Assembly: GCA_035610835.1 (NCBI GenBank)
Contig: CM069457.1
Coordinates: 42,697,319-42,761,318, forward strand
DNA length: 64,000 bases
Source of the DNA: Ophiura sarsii
Lineage: Eukaryota; Echinodermata; Ophiuroidea; Amphilepidida; Ophiuridae
Direction of reading: 5' to 3'
Part shown: piece by piece, positions 469 through 38,788 of the stretch
Numbering within the stretch: the stretch's first letter is position 1
Layout of the letters: the number at the start of each line of letters is the position of its first letter
The notes under the pieces: model-generated
What the model saw: only the letters and a program-made list of their open reading frames with translations
Told to the model about the DNA's origin: nothing
The model's database searches: none
Translations under genes and position numbers: made by a program

Positions 469-557
469 CTGGTTCCTGGCAAGGTTTGTGAGCCACCGAC
501 AGCTTTTGCAGACTTATACAGGATGCGTGCGATCACTAACAGCAATGTCATATTCAA
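469..557 (-). CDS. Receptor exon 35: end of TM5 and third intracellular loop
   Basis: Acceptor TATCCCACCAG, then phase-0 codons giving [19 protein letters not shown], the expected continuation of TM5 into a basic intracellular loop. The donor is uncertain: AG|GTTGGT at 469, or G|GTACCG four bases further on. This is the last exon I can see before the window ends. Confidence 0.7.

Positions 558-38788: not shown

What the first reader, a model, noticed from the sequence alone, without database searches (positions are those of the whole stretch)
469..38788. Adhesion GPCR with an unusual head: SHFRGG domain + 2 EGF + 7 Calx-beta + GAIN/GPS
Seen: 35 exons with consistent splice phase give one receptor in which a long, Cys-containing SHFRGG ectodomain and EGF repeats sit in front of seven Calx-beta domains and a GPS/7TM unit. 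Known: ADGRV1 joins many Calx-beta repeats to a 7TM, while SHFRGG ectodomains are, to my memory, mostly on other invertebrate membrane or secreted proteins. Inference: a lineage-specific Ca2+-dependent adhesion receptor whose head would be released or shifted on ligand pull.
Basis: partly seen in the sequence, partly recalled or inferred. Interest (0 to 1): 0.78.

Follow-up and report, generated by a model that had tools for sequence, protein, structure and literature searches.

The report
Brittle-star adhesion receptor with SHFRGG head
The window holds most of a gene, probably from a brittle star, for a cell-surface receptor that joins an unstudied N-terminal head to a calcium-binding rod and an adhesion-GPCR signalling core; it is a real, new domain combination within a known receptor class.

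Summary
Confirmed. A minus-strand model of 35 exons (38788..469) reads as one open protein of 1624 aa: signal peptide, SHFRGG head, 2 EGF, 7 Calx-beta, GAIN/GPS, TM1-TM5. TM6-TM7 lie beyond the window edge, so 469 is not the gene's end. Each of the 35 exons matches one of two Amphiura filiformis proteins: P0112 (SHFRGG+EGF+Calx-beta+first GAIN helix) or P0138 (Calx-beta+GAIN/GPS+7TM under an IgGFc-binding head). Together they bridge both breaks named as refuting. No single relative with SHFRGG head and 7TM was found. By identity the 7TM is nearer ADGRD1 (41%) and ADGRL3 (36%) than ADGRV1 (28%), but the tree is unresolved and does not exclude ADGRV. The GPS keeps two of four cysteines, as in P0138. 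EGF and Calx-beta exons are phase 1-1 cassettes, which suits head swapping. The head has no Pfam match; a proxy model is confident, with cadherin-like and Ig-like parts. Most likely a Ca2+-stiffened, tethered-agonist adhesion receptor; that function is inferred. New variant of a known kind, moderate interest.

The parts
38660..38788 (-). exon 1: signal peptide and the SHFRGG motif (aa 25-30), the likely mature N-terminus
   Evidence: 18 of 24 aligned residues identical to P0112
28931..33965 (-). exons 2-7: rest of SHFRGG head (to aa 361): 33965-33736, 32993-32821, 31958-31861, 30851-30586, 29351-29205, 28971-28931
   Evidence: modelled by proxy on P0111
25909..27580 (-). exons 8-9: two EGF-like modules (27580-27473, 26013-25909), both phase 1-1
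13620..24636 (-). exons 10-23: seven Calx-beta domains, each a 99-nt exon plus a 216-222-nt exon, every junction in phase 1
   Evidence: Pfam PF03160 7 stretches
12876..13003 (-). exon 24: first helix of the GAIN domain
   Evidence: matches the C-terminus of P0112 and P0138
6848..9863 (-). exons 25-29: GAIN domain up to the first GPS cysteine (9863-9740, 9313-9170, 8410-8332, 7736-7619, 6906-6848)
5856..5967 (-). exon 30: GPS with presumed cleavage triplet HT|T and tethered agonist TSFAILMQ
469..3756 (-). exons 31-35: TM1 to TM5 of a secretin-like (class B2) 7TM (3756-3653, 3020-2915, 2615-2395, 1243-1177, 557-469); TM6-TM7 and tail would lie beyond the window's low edge

Best explanation
It is one gene for an adhesion GPCR, most likely of an ophiuroid echinoderm. 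Shown by sequence: a signal peptide, a ~340-aa SHFRGG head, two EGF modules, seven Calx-beta domains, a GAIN domain with GPS, and the first five helices of a class B2 7TM, joined in phase. Inferred: the GAIN domain cleaves itself at HT|T and keeps the N-terminal part bound. The Calx-beta array, whose presumed Ca2+ ligands are conserved, forms a stiff rod holding the SHFRGG/EGF head away from the membrane to bind a neighbouring cell or matrix. Pull on the head loosens or removes the N-terminal fragment, freeing TSFAILMQ to enter the 7TM and signal. Shown: EGF units and Calx-beta pairs are phase 1-1 cassettes. Inferred: that is why related ophiuroid receptors carry different heads and different numbers of Calx-beta units on the same core.
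For: 35-exon in-phase model without stops. Pfam Calx-beta x7, 7tm_2, GPS. P0112 aligns at 41% over window aa 19-769 and again at 38% over 856-1218, into exon 24; P0138 at 38% over 751-1615; every exon matched by one or other. dN/dS between four pairs of Calx-beta repeats 0.22-0.42, so coding constraint, though three of the four pairs have dS over 1. Tethered agonist TSFAILMQ against TNFAILMQ in ADGRD1. P0138 shows the same core under an IgGFc-binding head with 4 Calx-beta. Exons 8-24 all start in phase 1. On the repeat alignment, by my count, all 7 repeats keep the conserved E, the D before Y/F, the first two D of DDD, and the E after it, and 6 of 7 keep the terminal D-x-D; their role as Ca2+ ligands is recalled from NCX1.
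Against: No transcript. No single relative with both SHFRGG head and 7TM was found: P0112 ends 7 aa after the stretch aligned to exon 24, P0138 has another head. TM6-TM7 are outside the window. The GPS lacks two of four conserved cysteines and has HTT, not the usual HLT, so cleavage is not certain. Codon scores of exons 27, 32 and 35 are slightly negative, though all three match P0138. Ligand, Ca2+ binding and G protein are untested.
Confidence: 0.72

Rival explanations
1. Two genes: a secreted SHFRGG-EGF-Calx-beta protein ending in or just after exon 24, and a separate receptor gene from exon 25 on, kept apart by the 3.0-kb intron 24 with its minisatellite.
For: P0112 in Amphiura is annotated much so: it ends 7 aa after the stretch aligned to exon 24 (832 of 839) with no TM-like segment. 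Reading through the exon 24 donor in the window gives 7 codons and then a stop. Intron 24 is 3012 bases with a 156-bp tandem array.
Against: Exon 24 matches the start of the GAIN domain, of little use without exons 25-30; in P0138 the same segment runs on into GPS and 7TM. No signal peptide or start was recognised for exons 25-35. Phases fit.
Confidence: 0.12
2. A soluble decoy and a full receptor are both made from this gene, by retention of intron 24 or an alternative last exon, giving a secreted head-plus-rod form.
For: P0112 has a short tail after the GAIN helix; the window's exon 24 donor read through also gives a short tail and a stop.
Against: P0112 may simply be a truncated gene model; no transcript seen.
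Confidence: 0.15
3. It is a divergent ADGRV (VLGR1) receptor that lost most Calx-beta units and the EAR/EPTP and LamG parts and gained a new head.
For: ADGRV1 is the known Calx-beta/7TM receptor (recalled); a clade of window+P0138+ADGRV1 is not rejected (p-AU 0.347).
Against: 7TM identity 28% to ADGRV1 against 41% to ADGRD1 and 36% to ADGRL3, 42% to a Saccoglossus and a coral receptor; PDB bits 33.4 (ADGRV1, over a shorter stretch) against 158.8 (ADGRD1); tethered agonist FAILMQ, whereas the ADGRV1 chain reads SVYAVYA; no EPTP or LamG among the Pfam families listed.
Confidence: 0.12
4. A decaying or unexpressed copy.
For: Introns hold repeat arrays and retroelement pieces.
Against: 35 exons without stop or frame break; dN/dS below 0.5 between repeats, which however partly reflects time before any decay.
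Confidence: 0.04

Closest known systems
P0112, uncharacterized protein of Amphiura filiformis (839 aa)
   Same: SHFRGG head, EGF modules, Calx-beta array, first GAIN helix; 41% identity over window aa 19-769
   Different: 3 Calx-beta units and, by eye, 3 EGF units; ends before the GPS, no TM-like segment
P0138, uncharacterized protein of Amphiura filiformis (1571 aa)
   Same: Calx-beta array, GAIN, two-cysteine GPS with HTT, 7TM part 114 of 208 aligned positions identical
   Different: IgGFc_binding head instead of SHFRGG+EGF; 4 Calx-beta; complete 7TM and tail
ADGRD1/ADGRD2 (ADGRD1 in PDB 8x9s; P0140, possum ADGRD2)
   Same: ADGRD1 is the best-scoring solved structure for the core, ADGRL3 next; near-identical tethered agonist
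   Different: P0140 carries a pentraxin head and no Calx-beta and four GPS cysteines
ADGRV1 (VLGR1)
   Same: Calx-beta repeats joined to GAIN/GPS and 7TM (recalled)
   Different: dozens of Calx-beta, EPTP/EAR and LamG parts (recalled); 7TM 28% identical
SHFRGG-headed invertebrate proteins (sea cucumber, crinoid, mollusc, coral, shrimp)
   Same: the head domain, 25-36% identity outside Amphiura
   Different: listed Pfam partners include HYR, EGF, sushi, CUB and zona pellucida (names recalled for the accessions); none of 27 lists 7tm_2

Membership tests
Adhesion GPCR (class B2) | GAIN domain with GPS motif | tested here: met
   Pfam GPS 27.1 bits against cut-off 22.5; the GAIN part aligns to ADGRL3 structures. 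Pfam's GAIN model itself is not listed for the window.
Adhesion GPCR (class B2) | secretin-like seven helices | tested here: inconclusive
   7tm_2 157 bits but only profile 12-188 of 250: TM1-TM5 in the window, TM6-TM7 beyond its edge
Adhesion GPCR (class B2) | self-cleavage at the GPS | not testable with these tools
   HT|T present, but only the first and third GPS cysteines
ADGRV | Calx-beta repeats before the GAIN domain | tested here: met
   7 Calx-beta stretches
ADGRV | EPTP/EAR repeats and LamG/pentraxin domain (recalled) | tested here: not met
   not among the 7 Pfam families at E up to 1; the model runs from a signal peptide to TM5
ADGRV | 7TM groups with ADGRV1 | tested here: inconclusive
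   not grouped in the tree, but a forced clade is not rejected, p-AU 0.347; ADGRV1 branch very long
ADGRD | 7TM groups with ADGRD1/D2 | tested here: inconclusive
   best PDB score and 41% identity to ADGRD1, but the clade is in 18% of 200 bootstrap trees, p-AU 0.234, and by tree path ADGRL3 (1.81) is slightly nearer than ADGRD1 (1.96)
ADGRD | pentraxin-like head (seen in P0140; otherwise recalled) | tested here: not met
   not listed; P0140 has it
SHFRGG ectodomain | motif just after the signal peptide and the conserved positions of the head | tested here: met
   motif at aa 25; 17 of 18 invariant and 17 of 17 comparable nearly invariant positions kept, the exception being E191 to Q
Calx-beta | Pfam PF03160 | tested here: met
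   187.8 bits, 7 stretches; repeats 4-5, the two of seven given, match Na/Ca-exchanger Ca2+-binding domains of known structure, E 2e-6 to 4e-5

The most novel reading that the evidence does not exclude
Ophiuroids have their own subfamily of adhesion GPCRs in which swappable heads (SHFRGG+EGF here, IgGFc-binding in P0138) ride on a Calx-beta rod of varying length that was joined to an ADGRD/ADGRL-like signalling core independently of ADGRV1. The GAIN domain has dropped one of its two GPS disulfides, giving a release point that opens at a different force. Phase 1-1 cassettes make the heads exchangeable, so one mechanical chassis reads several ligands.
Probability: 0.4. Interest if true: 0.65.

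Novelty: new variant of a known kind. Interest (0 to 1): 0.47.

Why it matters
If right, a Calx-beta rod was joined to an adhesion-GPCR core a second time, which would point to the rod as a useful mechanical part rather than a historical accident of ADGRV1. The two-cysteine GPS offers a natural test of what the second disulfide does for NTF-CTF stability. The SHFRGG head, found on proteins of corals, molluscs and echinoderms among others, had no hit in the paper search for that word and no Pfam family in the scans here; a receptor that carries it gives a way to look for its ligand.

Tried and rejected
The whole-protein homology search was swamped by Calx-beta proteins (all 110 listed hits carry PF03160; those named are bacterial) and said nothing about the receptor; regional searches answered. 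One search used a 676-aa query, so only proteins of 372-1183 aa could be found; one search covered 893-2842 aa but scored only the 7987 candidates with most shared words. Absence of a SHFRGG+7TM relative is therefore weak evidence.

The 7TM tree is largely unresolved: 2 of 10 inner branches are well supported. It does not settle ADGRD, ADGRL or ADGRV; even the pairing of window and P0138, well supported in the earlier tree without ADGRV1 (98/99), is not marked as supported there. The Calx-beta repeat tree has no branch at the stated support level and gives no domain-by-domain orthology. In one search I left out P0142, P0144 and P0147 (long branches). Alignment A1 took 24 of the 27 proteins (not P0122, P0123, P0137).

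Two model versions were not used as final: the automatic scan, trained on seed exons that already included the Calx-beta exons, missed most head exons, the later GAIN exons and the 7TM exons; one search had off-by-one exon ends. Chance was not tested by simulation, since splice sites were chosen by hand; support rests on homology instead.

Full report
What is there. On the minus strand, from the ATG at 38788 down to 469, thirty-five exons join in phase to 1624 codons without a stop. An automatic scan, trained on seed exons that included Calx-beta exons, recovered exons 1-2 and most of 10-26; the other exons and some ends were set by hand from reading frames, splice signals and recalled family motifs. 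Pfam on the joined protein lists Calx-beta (7 stretches, E 7e-56), 7tm_2 (E 7e-46, profile 12-188 of 250), GPS (E 6e-6) and EGF models below their cut-offs. Ends and exon count agree with the finding, except that 469 is where the last recognised exon ends, in the loop after TM5, not the end of the gene: P0138 continues there with TM6 and TM7.

Is it one gene? The best independent evidence is two annotated proteins of the brittle star Amphiura filiformis. P0112 (839 aa) runs SHFRGG - EGF - Calx-beta - first GAIN helix and aligns to window aa 19-769 at 41% and, in a second alignment, to 856-1218. P0138 (1571 aa) runs IgGFc-binding - four Calx-beta - GAIN/GPS - full 7TM and aligns to 751-1615 at 38%. 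What they do not give is one protein with both the SHFRGG head and the 7TM. That link rests on the window's own phase-consistent exon chain and on exon 24 being the start of a GAIN domain. Coding constraint is visible: dN/dS between four pairs of Calx-beta repeats is 0.22 to 0.42, with dS over 1 in three of them.

The source organism is not stated; the closest relatives found for head and core are from an ophiuroid (51% and 55% identity), so an ophiuroid is the likely source, but the own-genome search did not complete.

The rod. Each Calx-beta domain is a pair of exons, 99 nt and 216-222 nt, every junction in phase 1; with the EGF exons this makes 17 exons in a row (8-24) that start in phase 1. 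Units 5 and 6 are 84% identical in protein and share the first 27 bases of both their introns; the other pairs are 33-56% identical. The array thus seems to grow by copying whole cassettes. By my count on that alignment the acidic positions that, from recall, bind Ca2+ in NCX1 are kept in all seven units, except the terminal D-x-D, kept in six. Repeats 4-5 match the Na/Ca-exchanger Ca2+-binding domains among solved structures.

The core. The GPS reads C-S-F-W-D ... [16 protein letters not shown]. The Saccoglossus relative P0139 and possum ADGRD2 have four cysteines; the window and P0138 both lack the second and fourth. A review states that two conserved disulfides anchor near the cleavage site, written CxCxHL|T (PMC13197933, passages seen); here one must be missing. 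The residue after the histidine is T, not L; P0138 and P0139 have the same HTT. The tethered agonist TSFAILMQ differs from that of ADGRD1 by one residue in eight. Against solved structures the core scores 158.8 bits with ADGRD1, 145.6 with ADGRL3 (over a longer stretch that includes GAIN) and 33.4 with ADGRV1 (over a shorter one). Identities in the 7TM part: P0138 55%, P0139 42%, a coral receptor 42%, ADGRD1 41%, ADGRL3 36%, ADGRD2 35%, ADGRG6 30%, ADGRV1 28%. The tree is too weak to place it: neither a clade with ADGRV1 (p-AU 0.347) nor one with the ADGRD group (p-AU 0.234, 18% of 200 bootstrap trees) is rejected, and by path ADGRL3 lies slightly nearer than ADGRD1. So independent joining of Calx-beta to a non-ADGRV core is favoured by similarity, not shown. 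PMC12716839 reports ADGRV orthologues in choanoflagellates and extensive domain shuffling in adhesion GPCRs (passages), which fits such shuffling in general.

How it most likely works. Shown: domains, phases, constraint, near-identity of the agonist. Inferred from established adhesion-GPCR biology: self-cleavage, retention of the N-terminal fragment, release or shift on pull, binding of the freed agonist in the 7TM. Inferred from NCX1: a Ca2+-stiffened rod. Guessed: a cAMP output as for ADGRD1 (recalled), and that the single-disulfide GPS changes the force needed.

Is it novel? Adhesion GPCRs are known to shuffle heads, and head and rod are known modules. In the open-licence library no paper holds the string SHFRGG (one term). 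Searches joining adhesion GPCR or VLGR1/ADGRV1 or 7tm_2 with Calx-beta, echinoderm, amphioxus, brittle star, sea urchin or Amphiura terms listed no paper that, by title and start of abstract, describes such a receptor; I saw passages of four of them (PMC12716839, PMC13197933, PMC4302439, PMC11959729) and read none in full. I therefore rate it a new variant of a known kind, of moderate interest.

Noticed in passing
window 10382-12109 (intron 24): Tandem array, 156-bp unit x 10.9, whose frames read like the C-terminal stretch of the LINE-type reverse transcriptase frame at 4554-5513 ([10 protein letters not shown] against [10 protein letters not shown] and onward): a minisatellite that seems to have grown from a retroelement piece, with unit length a multiple of three.
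   Followed up: partly
window 4554-5513 (-) and 7282-7632 (+): Reverse-transcriptase matches (RVT_1, E 9e-12 and 6e-9) inside introns 30 and 28 of the receptor gene.
   Followed up: partly
window 36169-36693 (-): Open frame of 175 aa with a Cys-rich stretch in intron 1, no Pfam match.
   Followed up: partly
window 37033-37379: Microsatellite block (CTTCTC)50 and (CTA)16 in intron 1.
   Followed up: no
window 39200-44400 and 45490-50060: Dense arrays of AT-rich repeats upstream of the gene. None of five long frames tested between 48.6 and 63.9 kb has a Pfam match; frames in 39.2-44.4 kb were not tested.
   Followed up: partly
P0138 (Amphiura filiformis): An adhesion GPCR with an IgGFc-binding head on a Calx-beta rod, itself an unusual combination.
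   Followed up: partly
window 12855-12876 and end of P0112: Reading through the exon 24 donor gives 7 codons and a stop, much as P0112 ends; a soluble form by intron retention is possible.
   Followed up: no
model residue 1428 (exon 30) and P0138: Both receptors have a cysteine four residues after the FAILMQ/FAILLQ agonist core (ITGC, VSEC); P0139 and P0140 have none there.
   Followed up: no
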